DNA from: Aeromonas piscicola | Lineage (GTDB): Bacteria > Pseudomonadota > Gammaproteobacteria > Enterobacterales > Aeromonadaceae | DNA length: 64,000 bases | Assembly: GCF_000820005.1 (NCBI RefSeq) | Contig: NZ_CDBL01000073.1 | Location: forward strand, 62,001-126,000 | Reading direction: 5' to 3' | In this document: positions 15,621-22,619 of the stretch, piece after piece | How positions within the stretch are numbered: position 1 is the stretch's first letter | Layout of the letters: each line of letters starts with the position of its first letter | Translations under genes and position numbers: made by a program | The notes under the pieces: model-generated | Seen by the model: only the letters and a program-made list of their open reading frames with translations | Databases searched by the model: none | What the model was told of the DNA's origin: nothing

Positions 15621-15721
15621 GATTGGTTCTTGCAGATAAATTGGTTTTAAGTAGCTGTTTTTAAATGAATAAAAATCTTCGTGTGGTTGAGTGAACGCGC
15701 TGATGTGGCTGTCGAACTGTG

Positions 15722-15745
15722 ACCTTCGTCACTTGTGACGAAGGT
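15722..15745. promoter_or_regulatory. Perfect palindrome upstream of hyc: candidate FhlA enhancer or CRP site
   Basis: ACCTTCGTCAC and GTGACGAAGGT form a perfect 11-bp inverted repeat around TT. The arms contain TTCGT/ACGAA, the core of reported FhlA upstream sites. TGTGA-N6-TCAC (15719-15732) overlaps it and resembles a CRP box. The centre is about 125 bp upstream of the hyc sigma-54 element, a normal enhancer distance, with an AT-rich stretch between them. No gene is visible elsewhere in 15561-16067. Confidence 0.6.
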
Positions 15746-16067
15746 ATCGACAGAGAGTGTTGGCAGTGATCACAGAAATTTATTGAAGTTAGAGCTGTTG
15801 ATTGGCTCCTTATTGCTGAAACAGCGAGACTTGGTTCAAGCATAAAATGACTTGTGACATGGGGATAAATAACAAAATTGTTGATAGTTAGAATGGACAA
15901 GAAAGATATTTTCATATCTGAATAATTTGGATAGGATTCTTATGAGTGCCAATCGCTTTGTTTTGTGTAACTTTTGAGCATAAGTGGTGCACGTAGGGCG
16001 ATGCTTTAATAATTAAAGGATTTTTATTTAAAGCAGCCATAATAAGAAACAACTGAAGTTGATAAAA

Positions 16068-16676
16068 ATGATCAAAAAAATGAAAGCTTCCATAGCTACG
16101 ATTTTGTCGGTGATAAGTTTCAACGGTCTGGCTGCAGAATCAGGAATAACACATTTTTCAAATTGTGATGCATCCTTTTTTACTGCTGCGGCTAATAACC
16201 CACGGTTAAGAACAATTCCTGAAAGATTATACTCATCAGATTTAAAGAAAGATAAAAAGGTAAAGCTTGACTTGCATTACACAACACCGGAAGGAATAGA
16301 GGTATCCGGTTTTGTGGTAACATACACAGACTTTGATGCGTATAAAGAATATACGCCGATGGATGTGAGAGGACAGTTTTATTACTGGGGGTTTACATCA
16401 ACCCAACCCATCGAAACTGTGGTCGCTCTTATGTCGAAGACATTGAGTTTGCAAAAATTGGACGATGAGAATTATGTTTTCAATCCGATGATAAGAAATG
16501 AAGGCTCAAACTGGGTGAAGAATAACTCTGCCGTTACAGATATATCTCCTGCAGAGAAAACGACAGAAAAAGTATTTTTAATTGAGAAGGCAGATAACCA
16601 AACTGTAGAAATACTCTGCTCCCTGCAAGGTAGTGTTAGTCAGCAAGATTTATATGAAGCAGGAGTACAGAAATGA
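16068..16676 (+). CDS. Predicted exported protein of unknown function
   Basis: 202 aa. A lysine-rich N-terminus followed by a hydrophobic stretch ending FNGLAA-ES looks like a Sec signal peptide, so the mature protein should be periplasmic or secreted. I recognise no family. It has two Cys in the mature part. The start could be the ATG at 16068, or the one at 16080 or a TTG at 16059; GAAG lies about nine bases before 16068. It overlaps the next gene by ATGA, and both are AT-rich compared with the GC-rich surroundings, which suggests horizontal transfer. Confidence 0.75.
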   Translation: MIKKMKASIATILSVISFNGLAAESGITHFSNCDASFFTAAANNPRLRTIPERLYSSDLKKDKKVKLDLHYTTPEGIEVSGFVVTYTDFDAYKEYTPMDVRGQFYYWGFTSTQPIETVVALMSKTLSLQKLDDENYVFNPMIRNEGSNWVKNNSAVTDISPAEKTTEKVFLIEKADNQTVEILCSLQGSVSQQDLYEAGVQK

Positions 16677-17128
16677 CATCTAAATCATTTTTTATTGGAT
16701 TGCTGGCTGTACTTTTATCAGGTTGTGCTGGTGTAAAGAAAGATGAGCCTTTACCGAAAGGATATAGCTTGGCAAGCTCAAATGACTTGATGGATACATA
16801 TTTTGTCAAACCTGACTCATGGTTCTATAAAGGTAATAAAAATGTGCGTCAGTTAGAGGTGGTTAAAGCACTAAAAAAAGAAGATGAAGTGGAGGGGCAT
16901 AAATTTATTGCAATTAAAACGAAATATGTATTTGATTGCGAAAATAAAAATAAATACACAAAAATCCCAAGTGGCTTTTTTGACAATAAATATGCGATTG
17001 GGAAGCCTGTTGTCCCATTTCCTTTTAGCTCAAGCCGTTGGTTATTCGCTAAGGATGGATCATCAGAGGGTGTGATGTGGGATGTGCTTTGTGTTCAGCT
17101 AATGGCTGAGGTAGATGCGAAATCGTAA
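16673..17128 (+). CDS. Predicted lipoprotein of unknown function
   Basis: 151 aa. The signal peptide ends in the lipobox LLSGC (Cys18), so the protein is likely lipidated and anchored in the membrane. The family is not recognised. Two further Cys (CENKNK and VLCVQL) may form a disulfide. The ATG overlaps the TGA of the preceding exported protein, implying the two are made together and may interact. Base composition is as AT-rich as its partner. Confidence 0.78.
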   Translation: MTSKSFFIGLLAVLLSGCAGVKKDEPLPKGYSLASSNDLMDTYFVKPDSWFYKGNKNVRQLEVVKALKKEDEVEGHKFIAIKTKYVFDCENKNKYTKIPSGFFDNKYAIGKPVVPFPFSSSRWLFAKDGSSEGVMWDVLCVQLMAEVDAKS

Positions 17129-17211
17129 TGTCACTTTAACGTGTTATTTATATAAGCATAGAATTTTTGCTGGGTTTATATTTCCTCAAGTTCAGTAAGT
17201 AAAATGAATAT

Positions 17212-17290: not shown

Positions 17291-19164
17291 TCAAATATCC
17301 ACCTGCGAGCCCAGCTCTATCACCCGATTGGGTGGGATCTCGAACTGATCCGGTGCGCGCAGGGCGTTGCGCTGCAGCAGCATAAACAGCTTGCCGCGCA
17401 GGTAGAGATACCAGGGGCGTTCCTTCATGATCAGTGACTCGTGGGCCATGAAAAACGAGGTTTCCATCATGCGGCAGCTCAGTCCCTCGGCGTTGCAGCG
17501 GTGGAAGATCTCCTCCATGTTGGGGGTCTCGCGCCAGCCGTAGCTGGCCACCACCCGCCAGAAGGTGGGGGAGAGCTGCTCGATGCAGACCCGGCGCACG
17601 TTGTGGACGTAGGGCACATCCTCCACCCGCAGGGTGAGCAGGATTATCCGCTCGTGCAGCACCTTGTTGTGCTTGAGGTTGTGCAAGAGCGCATGGGGGA
17701 TCACATTGACCACCCGCGACATATAGACGGCGGTGCCTGCCACCCGGGTCGGCGGGGATTTTTCAAGCGAGGCGATCATGGGCTCGAGCGAATTGCCGTG
17801 CTCGTTCAGGCGGCGAATGAGCTGGAAGCGCTCGCTCTTCCAGCTGGTCATCAGGGTGAACATGACGGCGCCCAGGGTGAGCGGCAGCCAGCCACCGGAG
17901 AAGATCTTGCCCAGGTTGGCGGCAAACAGCGGCACGTCGATGGCCAGCAGCAGGGCAAACAGGGCAGCCACCAGATAGGTGGGCCAGCGCCAGCTGTTCT
18001 TGGCCACTGAGCAGAAGAGGATGGAGGTGAGCACCATGGTGCCGGTGACGGCGATGCCGTAGGCCGCTGCCAGATTGCTGGAGTGCTCGAAGCTCATGAT
18101 GACGATCACCACAGAGATATAGAGCATCCAGTTGATGACAGGAATATAGATCTGGCCGGACTCCTGCTCGGAGGTGTGGACGATACGGATGGGTGAGAGA
18201 TAACCGAGCCGCACCGCCTGCCGGGTGAGGGAGAAGACCCCGGAGATCACCGCCTGGGAGGCGATCACGGTCGCCATGGTCGCCAGCACCAGCAGCGGCA
18301 GCAGCGCCCATTTGGGGGCGAGCAGGAAGAAGGGGTTGGCGATGGCCGCCGGGTTGTCCAGCAGCAGCGCGCCTTGCCCGAAGTAGTTGAGCACCAGGGA
18401 GGGCAGCACCACCACAAACCAGGCGAGCCGGATCGGGTTCTTGCCAAAGTGGCCCATGTCGGCGTAGAGCGCCTCTACCCCTGTGATGGCCAGCACCACG
18501 GCGCCGAGGGCAAAGAAGGACGTGGTCTGGTACTCGGCGAAGAAGCGCAGCGCCCAGACGGGGTTGAGCGCCCCCAGCACCTCGGGATTCTGGATGATGC
18601 TGCGCAGCCCCAGCACGGCCAGAGTCAGAAACCAGGTGAGCATGATGGGGGCGAACAGCTTGCCCACCATGGCGGTGCCATGTTTTTGAATGGCAAACAG
18701 CAGGGTCAGCACCAGCACCGAGAGCGGCACTATACTATATAGGGGTCTAGGGAGGGGGCCATCAGGCTCAAGCCCTCGATGGCCGACATCACCGACATGG
18801 CCGGGGTGATCACCACCTCCCCATAGAAGAAACTGCCGCCAATCAGCCCCAGGATGATCAGTACCGGCGTCCAGCGGGGAGAGGCGTTGCGGGTGGCCAG
18901 CGACATCAGGGTGAGAATGCCCCCTTCACCAGCATTGTCGGCCCGCATCACGAAAGAGAGGTACTTGACCGAGACCACCAGGATCAGCAGCCAGAAGATG
19001 AGGGAGAGAAATCCCAGGATGGCGGCGGGTTCGGCCCCGATCCCGAATTGACCCGACAGGCACTCTCGCAGGGTATAGAGGGGGCTGGTGCCGATATCAC
19101 CATAGACCACGCCAATCGCCGCCAGCGTGACGCCGGACAGGGCTTGTTTGTTATCACAGCTCAT
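17291..19164 (-). pseudogene. kup: Kup potassium uptake protein, broken by a 5-bp duplication
   Basis: Kup is a K+/H+ symporter of the inner membrane. The first 144 codons (19164-18730) match E. coli Kup from [11 protein letters not shown] to LDPYIV and then hit TAG. The remaining 479 codons (from 18730) continue the match from [10 protein letters not shown] to the end in another frame. At 18730-18739 the five bases CTATA (plus strand) are present twice in tandem; removing one copy restores a single frame of about 622 aa, the normal length. The rest is well conserved, so the break looks recent. The downstream part could begin at a GTG at 18730, but without the first membrane segments it is unlikely to work. 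Confidence 0.88.
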
Positions 19165-19665
19165 GAGGTTATCTTGTTACACGTTTGCCAAAGCACAAGG
19201 GCCCGAACGATCAGGAAAAATCCTGATATTCAATCGGGATAGCATTAAGAAATTGCGATGGGAAAGGGAGCTAACTGGATATAAAGGGGCTCATTATGGG
19301 ACACAGTCTGTTCATCTGCCGTTAAGCGTATGATGACACACACATCGTGGGTTTATGCTCTGGTATAAATAATCAAAAGGGACTTTTGAACGAAATCATT
19401 AATTAATCGTTGATTGAAATAACTCGTTGGGACGCGTGCAAGCGTTTGTTTTCTCTGAGTATCCATATTGGTCAGAGTTTTCAATCAGGCTGGCTGAAAA
19501 ATAGACGATAAAATGCTGACTAATAAATTGATGGCGCTGTGGGTAAAGAGGTCGAAATTGGGTGGCGATAGAGTCTTTATTTGGTCTGGGGCAGGGACGG
19601 AAAGAAAAAGGACATGGCCACCACAACAGCAGCCACTATCAAGTAAAACGAGAGTGGATAGATAC
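19165..19665. other. Intergenic region between kup and the RT island
   Basis: About 500 bp with no convincing gene. Short reading frames here have no recognisable similarity or ribosome binding sites. The kup promoter should be in the left part. Composition drifts to AT-rich. Confidence 0.5.
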
Positions 19666-19751
19666 GTAGGGTGCAATGAACAAAGTGAATTGCACCACTA
19701 ATTGAATGAGTAAAAGTAGAGGTGCAATGCGCTGCGCTTATTGCACCCTAC
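19666..19751. repeat. REP-like element of two GGTGCAAT hairpins
   Basis: The 86-bp element begins GTAGGGTGCAAT and ends with its exact complement ATTGCACCCTAC. Inside are two separate hairpins with GGTGCAAT/ATTGCACC stems (19670-19696 and 19721-19747) joined by an AT-rich linker. This is the layout of a bacterial interspersed palindromic repeat. It marks the 3' side of the reverse transcriptase operon. Confidence 0.75.
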
Positions 19752-19771
19752 CGAGCTATATGACTGATGAA

Positions 19772-20533
19772 TTAAGTTCCATATACTTCAATGAAGTTAT
19801 TTTCAACTATAAATTTCTCAATTTCAGAAAAAAGCTCTTGACTGCTCAATGCACTCAGATTTTTACAAAAACTCTCTACACTCTCTGAAAATGATATACC
19901 CATCCTTGGATTAAATAATTCAACCTTATCAATTTTGAATGGTTTTTTTGAAAAGTGATTTAGTGTTAGATAAGTAAGAACTTGCCTGACATCTATAGCA
20001 TTAAAACTCCGCTCGCCGGACTTTATTTCAACCAGAGTATTTCCATATAAAAAATCACCAGTTGACTCGTTGACAAATCCACAGCCATCGAATACCGGGT
20101 CGATAATCAATGTGATATTATCATCTATATATTTCTTGCGGCTGAGCATGTATCTAGAATAGATCATTTGAAAAAGTCGAAGAGTCTGCCTTTTTTCAAT
20201 GTCAGATAATGGTAAATCACAATCATTGCCGTAGCTAAATTTTGATAAATATTTAATAGATGCGTCTTGTAATTGAATGAAATCTAAACTTTCAAAAAAA
20301 GACGGGTTATTAAAATGATCAAAATCTAGTCTGTTATTACTTGCATGTCTGAACATGTTAAAAAACAGTACATTTACTAATGCCGTATTGTTTTTCCTTT
20401 CTGCTGGGGTAAAAGGTTCATATATCGGTTGCAGCAAGCCGCCATTGATTAATCGGACATAGTTTTTCGAGTTGGGTAACGTTTCATTCCAAAAAGAAGT
20501 GTACTTCTTGGAAAATGTAGCTTCAGAGATCAT
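19772..20533 (-). CDS. Putative PD-(D/E)XK nuclease partner of the reverse transcriptase
   Basis: 253 aa, no named family recognised. The C-terminal half contains IIDPVFDG (Asp145/Asp149), then LVEIKSGE (Glu169-x-Lys171), then RQVLTYL (Gln184-x3-Tyr188). This order (acidic residue, ExK, QxxxY) is the pattern of RecB/Cas4-like PD-(D/E)XK nucleases. The N-terminal half looks helical with no motif I know. Its ATG overlaps the RT stop (ATGA) with GGAGG upstream, so it is made with the RT. It is strongly AT-rich, unlike the surrounding core genes. The nuclease assignment rests on motifs read by eye. Confidence 0.6.
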   Translation of the reverse strand: MISEATFSKKYTSFWNETLPNSKNYVRLINGGLLQPIYEPFTPAERKNNTALVNVLFFNMFRHASNNRLDFDHFNNPSFFESLDFIQLQDASIKYLSKFSYGNDCDLPLSDIEKRQTLRLFQMIYSRYMLSRKKYIDDNITLIIDPVFDGCGFVNESTGDFLYGNTLVEIKSGERSFNAIDVRQVLTYLTLNHFSKKPFKIDKVELFNPRMGISFSESVESFCKNLSALSSQELFSEIEKFIVENNFIEVYGT

Positions 20534-22182
20534 AGAGCTTCCTCCAAATTTCTACTGGTTTTTCTTAACGTTCCCCATTCACTGTAAAGAGTGTCAATGA
20601 AATTAAATTTTCCTTTGTTGTGGCCACGCCAATGTTTTCCCTCATCACCTAGTAAGTAAGAGGTAACAATAAATAGTCTTCTTTGCCATGATGTCATCGT
20701 GGGGAAGGTTCTTCTGAGTTCCGATAGCCAGTAATGTGTATTCCATTTTGCCATTGCTTGGGTTATAGCAAGTGTAATAAGAATGCTATCGGTGTTTGAC
20801 TTGTATATTTCGGATAGTATAGTTTGTCCTTCTACACTATTTTGCTTGGCAAATACTTTGACGGTATATGCTAGATTGAGTTCCGTCTTTAAAATGAATG
20901 AATCAGTTTTAATTAATTCAATAAGTTTTGACCGAATTTTTGCTTGCGTTTCAGTGTTAAAACGCCCCCAGTTAGTTGCTGTTACTTGCATAATAGTATT
21001 GAAAATAGGGTATAGTTCACTAACTCCATCAAAAATAATATTAAATGCATTCGATAAAACTTGATCATTAGTTGCTGCAAAAGCTCTAACTAGCTGCTTG
21101 CTAAAAGGTTGGTTGATCTTTGACTTCTGTAATTCATTACTTAGCATCCCCAATAAATCAAAGTCACGGAGAGACTCTTTTACTTTATCGTATTGCTCAT
21201 ATGCATTTTCTGAATAAGGATCAAATCTTATTGGAAGACTCATGAATTTGGCTTTCATAGATGACCCCTCATCTTCATCCAAGCCCTGTAATTTAGTATT
21301 TGTCAATGAGGTGAATTCATCTTTTGATAGAATGTTTGTTTTATGTTTTTGAAGTGTGAGCCCTTCATTCTCCATCAATTTTCGACTGATTAATGTAAGA
21401 ATGGAATGAGCCTCTTCTTTGGTCTTACAAAAAATCAAAAAATCATCCACATATCTTTTATACCTAACGCCATTAATTAATAGTATATGATCTAATGAAT
21501 CCAAGGCAAGTTCAGCTAATATTCGTGCTGCTGGCCCTCCAACAGGAAGACCATAAGAGTTGGTTCCTGAAAATGTCTGAATTAGTTTCTTTATTTTTGA
21601 GGATATATCTTTCTGTGGATCTATTCTATCTAAAGCATTCTCTAAACGATGGTGATATATTCTTGTGTAAAAATCAGCAATGTCACATGTCAGTACATAA
21701 TTTATAGATGGGTCATTTTTTGCAAGTTCAAGACTGTCTTCTTGGAATTTCCTCCAGTTAATGTCTTTGTCAAATATTGAACCTTTACTAAAGTCTGGTG
21801 AGAAGCGATATGAGTAAACATTATCGTTAGTAACTCGGTTTTTTTCAATTTCATTGCTTACGAAAAGGACTATGCCTAGGAAATATGCATTCCAATAAGG
21901 ATCTATTTGTGTTGCCCAGCGATAACCATTATAACCTACAGTCGAACATGTACTTATATTTACTGGTGGACATTCATTTAATCTTTCATTGAAATTTGAA
22001 TGTGTTTCATCAAGTGATTCAATCATTTTACTAAATATGTCAGAGAACATTCTAGTTTCATAAGGAAATGGGAATATATCTGTATCACCGAACTTTGTAA
22101 TGTTTTTTAACGCAAGAGCAAAAGCTGACTTTAAATCACCTTCTTTATAACTGAAGGTTTCGGAGGTATATGGTTGTGCCAT
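20530..22182 (-). CDS. Atypical (Abi/UG-type) reverse transcriptase
   Basis: 550 aa. RT motifs are clear: CDIADFY (166-172, motif A), SYGLPVGGP (209-217, motif B) and RYVDDF (243-248, motif C, catalytic YVDD). The palm starts late, after about 160 residues containing FGDTDIFPFP. About 270 helical residues with no group II intron maturase or endonuclease domain follow it. I see no msr-msd retron unit. This layout fits the unknown-group/abortive-infection RTs used in phage defence (DRT systems); I cannot assign the exact group. AAGGA lies nine bases before the ATG. AT-rich, in an operon with a nuclease-like gene. Confidence 0.85.
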   Translation of the reverse strand: MAQPYTSETFSYKEGDLKSAFALALKNITKFGDTDIFPFPYETRMFSDIFSKMIESLDETHSNFNERLNECPPVNISTCSTVGYNGYRWATQIDPYWNAYFLGIVLFVSNEIEKNRVTNDNVYSYRFSPDFSKGSIFDKDINWRKFQEDSLELAKNDPSINYVLTCDIADFYTRIYHHRLENALDRIDPQKDISSKIKKLIQTFSGTNSYGLPVGGPAARILAELALDSLDHILLINGVRYKRYVDDFLIFCKTKEEAHSILTLISRKLMENEGLTLQKHKTNILSKDEFTSLTNTKLQGLDEDEGSSMKAKFMSLPIRFDPYSENAYEQYDKVKESLRDFDLLGMLSNELQKSKINQPFSKQLVRAFAATNDQVLSNAFNIIFDGVSELYPIFNTIMQVTATNWGRFNTETQAKIRSKLIELIKTDSFILKTELNLAYTVKVFAKQNSVEGQTILSEIYKSNTDSILITLAITQAMAKWNTHYWLSELRRTFPTMTSWQRRLFIVTSYLLGDEGKHWRGHNKGKFNFIDTLYSEWGTLRKTSRNLEEAL

Positions 22183-22413
22183 AATTAAATTCCTTTTTAT
22201 TTAGCTGGACTAATTTAAAAATTATTTGTTTAAAAAACAACAATAAAATATTTTGATAGGAACCCTTTTCATATTTTCTCTGTGAAAACATTGCATGCGT
22301 CTCCTATGAAGCTGGGTTGCCAAGCGAGCCATAGTAACCGGACAGGTGAAAAACAGAAGGAGCAGGGGCCTAAAACCCGCTCTGGTTCAATAAAATTGTC
22401 ACTAAATGACGAT
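22183..22413 (-). other. Leader region of the RT operon
   Basis: No protein gene. The part nearest the RT start (22183-22260) is very AT-rich and probably holds the promoter. Some defence RTs have a templating ncRNA upstream of the RT gene; this region could hold one, but nothing in the sequence proves it. Confidence 0.35.
22348..22382 (-). terminator. Terminator after the small ORF pair
   Basis: On the minus strand GAGCGGG and CCCTGCTC pair, with one bulged base, around an 8-base loop, followed by CTTCTGTTTTT. It lies 32 bp after the stop of the 51-residue ORF and supports a separate transcription unit there, insulated from the RT genes. Confidence 0.6.
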
Positions 22414-22569
22414 TTATCGTTCGGTCTTGCTTGATACAGCTGGGCTGGCTCGATAGTAAAGCCACATAACAGTCACTCCCGATATGGCGCCGTTTATCCC
22501 CCCGATAATCAGCAGGGGCAGAGGCCTGTCAGCCGGTGTCGAGCTCGTCACTTTTGTCGTGTCGATCAC
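22414..22569 (-). CDS. Small predicted single-span membrane protein
   Basis: 51 aa from a GTG at 22569, or 45 aa from a GTG at 22551. The middle, PLPLLIIGGINGAISGVTVM, is a plausible single membrane helix, followed by a basic tail ending SSKTER. The GTG at 22569 overlaps the stop of the upstream 17-residue acidic ORF (GTGA). A hairpin terminator follows. No family recognised. Codon use is GC-rich like the core genome, unlike the RT operon next to it. Confidence 0.45.
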   Translation of the reverse strand: MIDTTKVTSSTPADRPLPLLIIGGINGAISGVTVMWLYYRASPAVSSKTER

Positions 22570-22619
22570 AGTTCGGCGGAGCTGTCGTCATCGTCATCGG
22601 CCTGAAAGTCGTCGTCCAT
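22566..22619 (-). CDS. Very short acidic ORF
   Basis: 17 codons, MDDDFQADDDDDSSAEL, nine of them Asp or Glu. AAGGGG lies about 11 bases upstream of the ATG, and the stop overlaps the GTG of the membrane protein gene. It could be a real microprotein or a leader that couples translation to the next ORF. No homologue recognised. Confidence 0.35.
   Translation of the reverse strand: MDDDFQADDDDDSSAEL

What the first reader, a model, noticed from the sequence alone, without database searches (positions are those of the whole stretch)
19772..22182. AT-rich reverse transcriptase + PD-(D/E)XK-like nuclease operon: candidate defence system
The RT has intact catalytic motifs (CDIADFY, YVDD) but no retron RNA, maturase or endonuclease domain, and a long helical C-terminus. 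A translationally coupled partner shows D...ExK...QxxxY, the RecB-like nuclease pattern. Both are much more AT-rich than their flanks and sit beside a broken gene and a repeat element. Abi/UG RTs are known phage-defence proteins; an RT with a dedicated nuclease in this layout is one I cannot match to a named DRT type.
Basis: partly seen in the sequence, partly recalled or inferred. Interest (0 to 1): 0.88.

Follow-up and report, generated by a model that had tools for sequence, protein, structure and literature searches.

The report
DRT8 phage-defence gene pair
Two overlapping bacterial genes, a DNA-making reverse transcriptase and a DNA-cutting nuclease, form a copy of the already named anti-virus system DRT8, whose way of working is not yet known; comparison with relatives suggests that it may need no RNA partner and that it carries its own RecB-type nuclease.

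Summary
The reverse transcriptase (RT; window 20530-22182, minus) scores 546 bits to PADLOC Drt8 (next best family 124) and its partner (19772-20533, minus) 231 bits to RTasPDDEXK. Passages seen call DRT8 antiphage with its mechanism unresolved. Found here: (1) the nuclease-paired RTs form one clade in eight phyla, catalytic residues invariant in 42 of 42; (2) the nuclease model resembles RecB-family nucleases; (3) the RT model matches DRT4, DRT6 and AbiK over its whole length, DRT2 and DRT9 over the core only; (4) DNA similarity among DRT8 relatives ends within 45 nt of the RT start and 15 nt of the nuclease stop, while one DRT2 pair at like divergence extends 257-304 nt upstream, so no conserved flanking RNA is seen. 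Best guess: RNA-free, protein-primed DNA synthesis held in check by an on-board RecB-type nuclease (tentative; the nuclease as killing effector is nearly as likely). The site is a recurrent cargo spot in the genus, with some known defence genes.

The parts
20530..22182 (-). Drt8 reverse transcriptase, 550 aa: RT core about residues 1-300, helical C-terminal domain about 327-550
   Evidence: PADLOC Drt8 546 bits, E 2.3e-164; Pfam RVT_1; model mean pLDDT 88.1
19772..20533 (-). RT-associated RecB-like PD-(D/E)XK nuclease, 253 aa
   Evidence: PADLOC RTasPDDEXK 231 bits, E 3.5e-69; model mean pLDDT 92.6; best Z 10.0, to AdnA
20530..20533 (-). 4-nt start/stop overlap coupling the two genes
   Evidence: the same 4-nt overlap is possible in 38 of 42 paired systems, not in L045, L046, L047, L055
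21682..21684 (-). RT motif A aspartate D167
   Evidence: Invariant in 42 of 42
21442..21453 (-). RT YVDD motif (Y244-D247)
   Evidence: D246 and D247 invariant in 42 of 42
21211..21222 (-). DPYS motif (321-324) in a low-confidence linker between RT core and helical domain; Y323 is a candidate priming tyrosine (inference)
   Evidence: D321, P322, Y323 invariant in 42 of 42; pLDDT under 50 at 320-327
19970..20056 (-). Nuclease active-site residues D160, E169, K171, Q184, Y188
   Evidence: All invariant in 42 of 42
19670..19747 (.). Paired palindromes (REP/REPIN-like, recalled term), a feature of the site and not of the system
   Evidence: own-genome copies; similar DNA next to the kup-like gene in several congeners that lack a close RT

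Best explanation
The pair is a complete DRT8 phage-defence cassette (about 0.97). The RT is of the AbiK/DRT4 kind: an oligomeric enzyme that makes DNA without an RNA template, primed on one of its own tyrosines (about 0.65, inferred from fold and from the lack of a conserved flanking RNA). The partner is a RecB-family nuclease that removes this DNA in uninfected cells; a phage protein that blocks RecB-type nucleases or caps DNA ends lets the DNA pile up, which stops growth before phage is released (about 0.4). Shown here: family, pairing, intact active sites, folds of the models, absence of conserved flanking DNA. Inferred: DNA product, priming, oligomer, role of the nuclease, trigger. Antiphage activity of the type is taken from passages of reviews, not tested here.
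For: Family. Pairing: the genome scan was made with RT patterns only; of 41 loci, 34 of 34 with 35% identity or more and an RT long enough to judge have the nuclease beside them, 5 of 5 others that are nearly complete do not, and 2 cut or partial loci are left out. The 42 paired RTs are one side of a branch with support 100/99. Fold: the RT aligns over 455-462 residues with DRT6 (Z 20.8), DRT4 (18.8), UG15 (16.9) and AbiK (16.5), but over about 250 with DRT2 (18.0) and DRT9 (17.6); Z itself does not separate them, since core-only intron RTs reach 20.9, so the argument is the aligned length. RNA: in 28 of 28 pairs of eight relatives, DNA similarity starts no more than 45 nt before the RT start and ends no more than 15 nt after the nuclease stop; the DRT2 control pair starts 257 or 304 nt upstream, by which of its two starts is used; no block of unusually conserved synonymous codons. 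In three of four E. coli records read, which are near-copies, the RT start overlaps the integrase gene's end; in the fourth, divergent one it starts 316 nt after it. Nuclease as control: DRT3 cannot be kept without host RecBCD and is set off by lambda Gam, and DRT9 cannot be kept without ExoI (PMC13174585 section 9; PMC12483538 passages).
Against: One relative (Brenneria, L136) has an open RT and a nuclease with an internal stop at 196 of 246 residues, which would be hard to keep if the nuclease were needed for survival. DRT4, DRT6 and AbiK have no partner nuclease in what I read, so host enzymes could suffice. The no-RNA result rests on one control pair, whose upstream stretch I did not check to be the DRT2 RNA, and would miss an RNA kept by structure alone or encoded elsewhere; the 13 pairs with L132 or L133 stop inside the genes and say little. 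No C-terminal priming tyrosine like Y666 of DRT3b is seen at the C-termini of the 16 RTs printed; Y323 is a guess. A review table lists another effector, the nucleosidase Cap17, with 'DRT8' (PMC10952713 passage); I did not look for it in the loci.
Confidence: 0.45

Rival explanations
1. The nuclease is the killing or phage-cutting effector: DNA made by the RT, or the RT complex sensing infection, switches the nuclease on, as effector domains work in retrons and in DRT1.
For: DRT1's nitrilase is activated by its own DNA adducts (PMC13275509, abstract and passages). The invariant nuclease active site and constant pairing fit an effector equally well. The two cassettes seen with a broken RT keep an intact nuclease (L158, L199), which an effector that is silent without its RT would allow. 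The RT-intact, nuclease-broken case (L136) would be harmless under this reading.
Against: The best-scoring folds are RecB-family nucleases such as AdnA, MGME1 and Cas4-like ACE1, by established knowledge mostly exonucleases on DNA ends, which suit product removal at least as well.
Confidence: 0.35
2. The RT and nuclease together process phage DNA directly, for example the nuclease cuts phage DNA at places marked or copied by the RT.
For: Cas4 and AddAB/RecB-like nucleases work with other enzymes on DNA ends (established knowledge); fold match only.
Against: No further domain is found in either protein by Pfam above cut-off beyond the RT, and no RNA family at the locus.
Confidence: 0.12
3. A DRT8 system with an undetected non-coding RNA template, as in DRT2, DRT9 and DRT10.
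For: Several named DRT types need such an RNA (PMC12596737 and PMC12632851, passages and listing); similarity searches can miss RNAs kept by structure only; in one divergent E. coli record there is room upstream of the RT.
Against: No flanking conservation in 28 of 28 pairs while one DRT2 pair shows 257-304 nt; RT start inside the integrase gene in three near-identical E. coli records; whole-length fold match to RTs described as RNA-free.
Confidence: 0.12

Closest known systems
DRT8 (PADLOC Drt8 + RTasPDDEXK)
   Same: Both proteins score best to its two models; same gene order as the relatives seen; E. coli copy 60% identical in the RT and 43% in the nuclease
   Different: Nothing found that sets it apart; another host and insertion site
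AbiK / AbiP2 / DRT4 / DRT6 (class 1 UG/Abi RTs)
   Same: Whole-length fold match including the helical domain; no conserved flanking RNA seen
   Different: DRT4 and DRT6 are listed as single-gene systems (PMC13213688); by sequence the best hit is Drt8 at 546 bits, with Drt4 at 77, Drt6 at 70, AbiP2 at 67 and AbiK at 59
DRT3 and DRT9 with host RecBCD or ExoI
   Same: A nuclease keeps RT-made DNA low (PMC13174585 section 9; PMC12483538 passages)
   Different: There the nuclease belongs to the host; here a RecB-like nuclease is in the operon (role not tested)
RecB-family nucleases (AdnA, MGME1, ACE1/Cas4-like, AddAB, RecB, Dna2)
   Same: Fold (Z 10.0 to AdnA, 180 residues at 4.0 A; MGME1 9.4; ACE1 9.2) and D...ExK...QxxxY pattern
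   Different: Stand-alone 253-aa protein; 8-15% identity to these; no cysteine among the residues conserved at 90% or more, so no conserved Fe-S cluster is seen

Membership tests
DRT8 | RT of the Drt8 family | tested here: met
   PADLOC 546 bits, E 2.3e-164, profile 4-489 of 493. The model alone is broad: it also takes RTs without the nuclease
DRT8 | PD-(D/E)XK partner encoded with the RT | tested here: met
   RTasPDDEXK 231 bits over 1-248 of 253; fold; DRT8 described by a PD-(D/E)XK domain in PMC12596737 (passage)
DRT8 | Protection against phage that needs RT and nuclease activity | not testable with these tools
   Needs plating assays
Class 1 UG/Abi RTs (AbiK/DRT4 kind) | RT core followed by an alpha-helical repeat domain | tested here: met
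   455-462 residues aligned with DRT4, DRT6, UG15, AbiK
Class 1 UG/Abi RTs (AbiK/DRT4 kind) | No RNA template or scaffold | tested here: inconclusive
   No conserved flank in 28 of 28 pairs, with one positive control pair; RNA kept by structure or encoded elsewhere is not excluded
Class 1 UG/Abi RTs (AbiK/DRT4 kind) | Protein-primed synthesis from a tyrosine | not testable with these tools
   Y125, Y323 and Y331 are invariant in 42 of 42 outside the palm; needs biochemistry
RecB-like PD-(D/E)XK nucleases | Fold plus D...ExK...QxxxY | tested here: met
   Z 8-10, moderate
Retron | RT of the retron family that NCBIfam lists for it | tested here: not met
   retron_St85_RT 48.5 bits against a cut-off of 235; only this retron model came up
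Retron | msr-msd RNA next to the RT | tested here: inconclusive
   No Rfam match but tRNA-Sec at gathering scores; no conserved flanking DNA
Group II intron RT | Over-cut-off match to the intron RT/maturase model | tested here: not met
   group_II_RT_mat 71 bits against a cut-off of 300; Pfam above cut-off finds RVT_1 only

The most novel reading that the evidence does not exclude
DRT8 is a self-contained, RNA-free 'synthesise-and-destroy' cycle: a class-1-type RT makes DNA all the time and its own RecB-type nuclease destroys it, so that the cassette itself, not host RecBCD or ExoI, is the bait for phage inhibitors of such nucleases. The RT keeps acidic and arginine positions near those that set the base order in DRT3b (E42, E in 38 and D in 4 of 42; R220 in motif B, 42 of 42; that these correspond to E22 and R241 of the published DRT3b is my inference through the own genome's Drt3b), so the product may even have a defined, protein-set sequence.
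Probability: 0.25. Interest if true: 0.65.

Novelty: new member of a known kind. Interest (0 to 1): 0.35.

Why it matters
DRT8 is one of the DRT types whose mechanism is listed as unresolved (PMC13314766 and PMC13213688). If the nuclease is a built-in brake, DRT8 would hold both halves of the 'make DNA, degrade DNA' logic in one operon, and the question could be settled with a few point mutants in laboratory E. coli. The observation that the PADLOC Drt8 model also takes RTs without the nuclease matters for annotation.

Tried and rejected
Considered and dropped: (a) a new DRT type: both proteins fall in DRT8. (b) An RT-nuclease fusion in L015 (827 aa): I took it for one at first (my checkpoint note, says so), but its C-terminal part matches neither PADLOC nor my nuclease profile, and Pfam only below cut-off; it is not used. 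(c) DRT3 of the same genome as a positive control for the RNA test: relatives too distant. (d) DRT2 loci L201-L203: too distant. Of the 15 pairs of six DRT2 loci, only L204/L205 is alike enough for DNA similarity along the gene, and it served as control. (e) Using natural breakages to tell brake from effector: two RT-broken, one nuclease-broken, not decisive. (f) Phage records with the RT at E 1e-15 (none); single-protein viral scans with Drt3a and Drt2 (none). (g) phmmer of the nuclease against PDB sequences: one hit at E 0.44; Foldseek: no hit at or under 0.001, best 0.0018 to Dna2. The fold claim thus rests on VIA-align 2, where Z under 8 is common by chance and the best rows are 9-10.

Rows dropped before counts: from the 42-row set L051, L052, L054 (near-copies of L043 or L049), L158 (RT interrupted), L163 and L168 (cut or partial). 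L050 and L134 have identical RTs. One of 18 site intervals (L282) had no kup-side hit and is not counted as bracketed. In one search the starts used for L131 and L049 are approximate (not at a start codon).

Recalled or read by eye, from no call: that the host is Aeromonas; the names kup and formate dehydrogenase for the flanking genes; the term REPIN/REP; that the E. coli satellites are P4-like; that DRT2 RNAs lie upstream of the RT; that DRT8 comes from Mestre and colleagues 2022.

On checking this report against the calls I mended the following without changing odds: the overlap is 38 of 42, not all; cargo at the site is not all different; the E. coli overlap is three of four records; the DRT2 extension is 257 or 304 nt; the retron RNA test is inconclusive; the Cap17 passage was added.

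Full report
What is there. Two genes on the minus strand, RT 20530-22182 (550 aa) and partner 19772-20533 (253 aa), overlap by 4 nt. They are 31-36% GC in 600-base windows against 57-65% in the genes on both sides. The RT carries D167 (CDIADFY) and YVDD; the partner carries D160, E169-x-K171 and Q184-xxx-Y188.

What it is. hmmscan against PADLOC gives Drt8 at 546 bits for the RT (next best family RT_UG21, 124 bits) and RTasPDDEXK at 231 bits for the partner. NCBIfam gives only below-cut-off RT matches and Pfam only RVT_1 above cut-off for the RT; both give nothing for the partner. The pair is therefore a DRT8 system. Literature: a search for DRT8 with 'reverse transcriptase' found 4 papers, a wider one 11, of which 6 by their titles concern other subjects. 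A passage of PMC12596737 describes DRT8 by its PD-(D/E)XK domain. A passage of PMC13314766 and part 1 of 2 of PMC13213688 list it as antiphage with no mechanism established. A passage (table) of PMC10952713 lists the nucleosidase Cap17 with DRT8, which I did not look for. A search for 'defense-associated reverse transcriptase' with 'pddexk nuclease' found none. The paper that I recall as the source (NAR 2022) is not held, and neither is the DRT4 paper.

Relatives. In the genus, 7 of 37 genomes give a match to the RT, the own one included; the six others score 44 bits or less. In E. coli 105 of 5,426 genomes carry it, 104 at 99% or more identity to the copy used as query and one at 80-90%, all on chromosomes (60 rows seen). 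Of four E. coli records read with annotation, three near-identical ones have the cassette between an integrase next to tRNA-Thr and a phage polarity suppression gene, with the RT start overlapping the integrase end; in the divergent one the RT starts 316 nt after the integrase. A scan of GTDB genomes with RT patterns gave 41 loci. With my nuclease profile, 34 of these have the nuclease beside the RT, and they are the 34 with 35% identity or more and enough RT to judge (in one of them, L158, the RT is interrupted). Of the other seven, two are cut or partial (L163, L168) and five nearly complete RTs at 26-33% identity have none.

Conservation. Over 42 paired systems, RT D167, D246, D247 and nuclease D160, E169, K171, Q184, Y188 are invariant. 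The 4-nt overlap is possible in 38 of 42 (29 ATGA, 8 GTGA, 1 TTGA); the four others (L045, L046, L047, L055) are a distant branch. A maximum-likelihood tree of 57 RTs puts the 42 paired ones on one side of a branch (100/99) and the 15 without nuclease on the other; the paired clade spans Pseudomonadota, Bacteroidota, Bacillota, Cyanobacteriota, Myxococcota, Verrucomicrobiota, Thermodesulfobacteriota and Ignavibacteriota. Some nuclease-less branches are long and their place is unsure. All five nuclease-less RTs that I put to PADLOC (of 15) still have Drt8 as best hit, at 387-534 bits (L014, L015, L016, L048, L056), so the RT model alone over-calls the two-gene system. 'Without nuclease' means that no ORF of 60 aa or more in the DNA held matched my profile at E 0.001; for L014-L016 only about 1.5 kb or less on each side is held.

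Folds. The nuclease model has mean pLDDT 92.6. Foldseek gives no hit at or under 0.001; its first six rows are Dna2, AdnAB, a restriction-endonuclease-like protein and Cas4. VIA-align 2 gives AdnA Z 10.0 (180 residues, 4.0 A), MGME1 9.4, ACE1 (Cas4 family) 9.2, AddAB 8.7, RecB 8.4, Dna2 8.0. These are RecB-type PD-(D/E)XK nucleases, so the reading is consistent though each Z is moderate. The RT model has mean pLDDT 88.1. The hits that cover most of its length are UG15/DRT4, DRT6, AbiP2, AbiK and AbiA (398-462 residues aligned, Z 16-21), while DRT2, DRT9, retron and intron RTs align over the core of about 190-270 residues with Z 13-21. Aligned length, not Z, tells them apart.

Is there an RNA? 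In eight relatives (28 pairs) DNA similarity covers the two genes and stops: earliest start 45 nt before the RT start, latest end 15 nt after the nuclease stop. The 13 pairs with L132 or L133 stop inside the genes and say less; the informative ones are the 15 pairs of the six closest (69-82% DNA identity). A DRT2 pair (L204/L205) with 68% identity in protein and 69% in DNA, a type with an upstream RNA (recalled), starts 257 or 304 nt upstream under the same settings; I did not check that this stretch is the RNA. Synonymous codons show no conserved block (25-codon windows 0.30-0.57 around a mean of 0.47 in the RT; 0.39-0.56 around 0.50 in the nuclease). Rfam finds nothing at the locus at gathering scores. 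This argues against a conserved flanking RNA; it does not exclude one.

Mechanism. According to passages of PMC12632851 and PMC13275509 and the PMC13174585 summary, class 1 UG/Abi RTs make untemplated, protein-primed DNA. PMC13174585 section 9 reports that DRT3 cannot be kept without RecBCD and is switched on by lambda Gam; PMC12483538 passages report the same logic for DRT9 and ExoI. From fold and absence of RNA I infer the first for DRT8; from the RecB fold of the partner I infer that DRT8 may carry its own version of that nuclease control. The rival, nuclease as effector, is nearly as likely; DRT1 offers a precedent for DNA-activated effectors. Natural breakages do not decide: L158 and L199 have interrupted RTs and intact nucleases, L136 an open RT and an interrupted nuclease; the last speaks against a strict need for the nuclease.

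Site. The stretch between the kup-like gene and the formate-dehydrogenase-like genes (names by eye) holds cargo in other species of the genus too. Of 18 intervals fetched, from 36 congeners searched, 17 are bracketed by both flanks and all 17 hold ORFs of 100 aa or more in AT-rich DNA. The cargo is mostly but not always different: L267 and L277 share theirs, and L271, L272 and L276 share one gene (by eye). Of the cargo proteins, 20 were put to Pfam and 10 to PADLOC: PtuA-like ATPase with HNH (L274), PtuA (L281), LmuB (L278), weak NucS/Shedu-like (L284) and a KAP NTPase fragment (L268); many gave nothing, among them 6 of the 10 in PADLOC. DNA like the palindrome pair lies next to the kup-like gene in several of these species, so the repeat belongs to the site.

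Verdict. A real, intact DRT8 cassette: a new member of a known kind, at a recurrent cargo site that includes defence genes. The added value is evidence that DRT8 has a class-1-type RT with no detectable conserved flanking RNA and a constantly paired RecB-type nuclease, and a sharp test for what that nuclease does.

Noticed in passing
window about 19200-22600; L267-L284: The gap between the kup-like gene and the formate-dehydrogenase-like genes is a variable cargo site in the genus: 17 of 18 fetched intervals are bracketed by both flanks and carry ORFs in AT-rich DNA, mostly different, among them PtuA/HNH, PtuA, LmuB and a weak NucS/Shedu-like protein.
   Followed up: partly
window 19670-19747; G000:C12:17501-17642 and other places: Paired palindromes (REPIN-like, recalled term); 13 matches at ten places in the genome; a pair also lies beside the genome's DRT3 genes.
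   Followed up: partly
L177 6353-10230 (G000:C12): The same genome holds a DRT3 system: Drt3b 696 bits, Drt3a 439 bits, and a SLATT-domain partner.
   Followed up: partly
window 17291-19164: The kup-like transporter gene is split into two abutting ORFs by a frameshift at about 18730; whether congeners have it whole was not tested.
   Followed up: no
L048, L056, L014, L015, L016: RTs that PADLOC calls Drt8 but that have no nuclease in the DNA held; they lie on the other side of the tree. L015 is an 827-aa protein with an unidentified C-terminal part.
   Followed up: partly
window 15700-17200: Another AT-rich block (36-39% GC) with two ORFs at 16059-16676 and 16673-17128 (+), just beyond the kup-like gene.
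   Followed up: no
L014 3782-4489: Downstream of the nuclease-less Drt8-type RT lies a gene that reads like a REP-associated transposase (by eye only).
   Followed up: no
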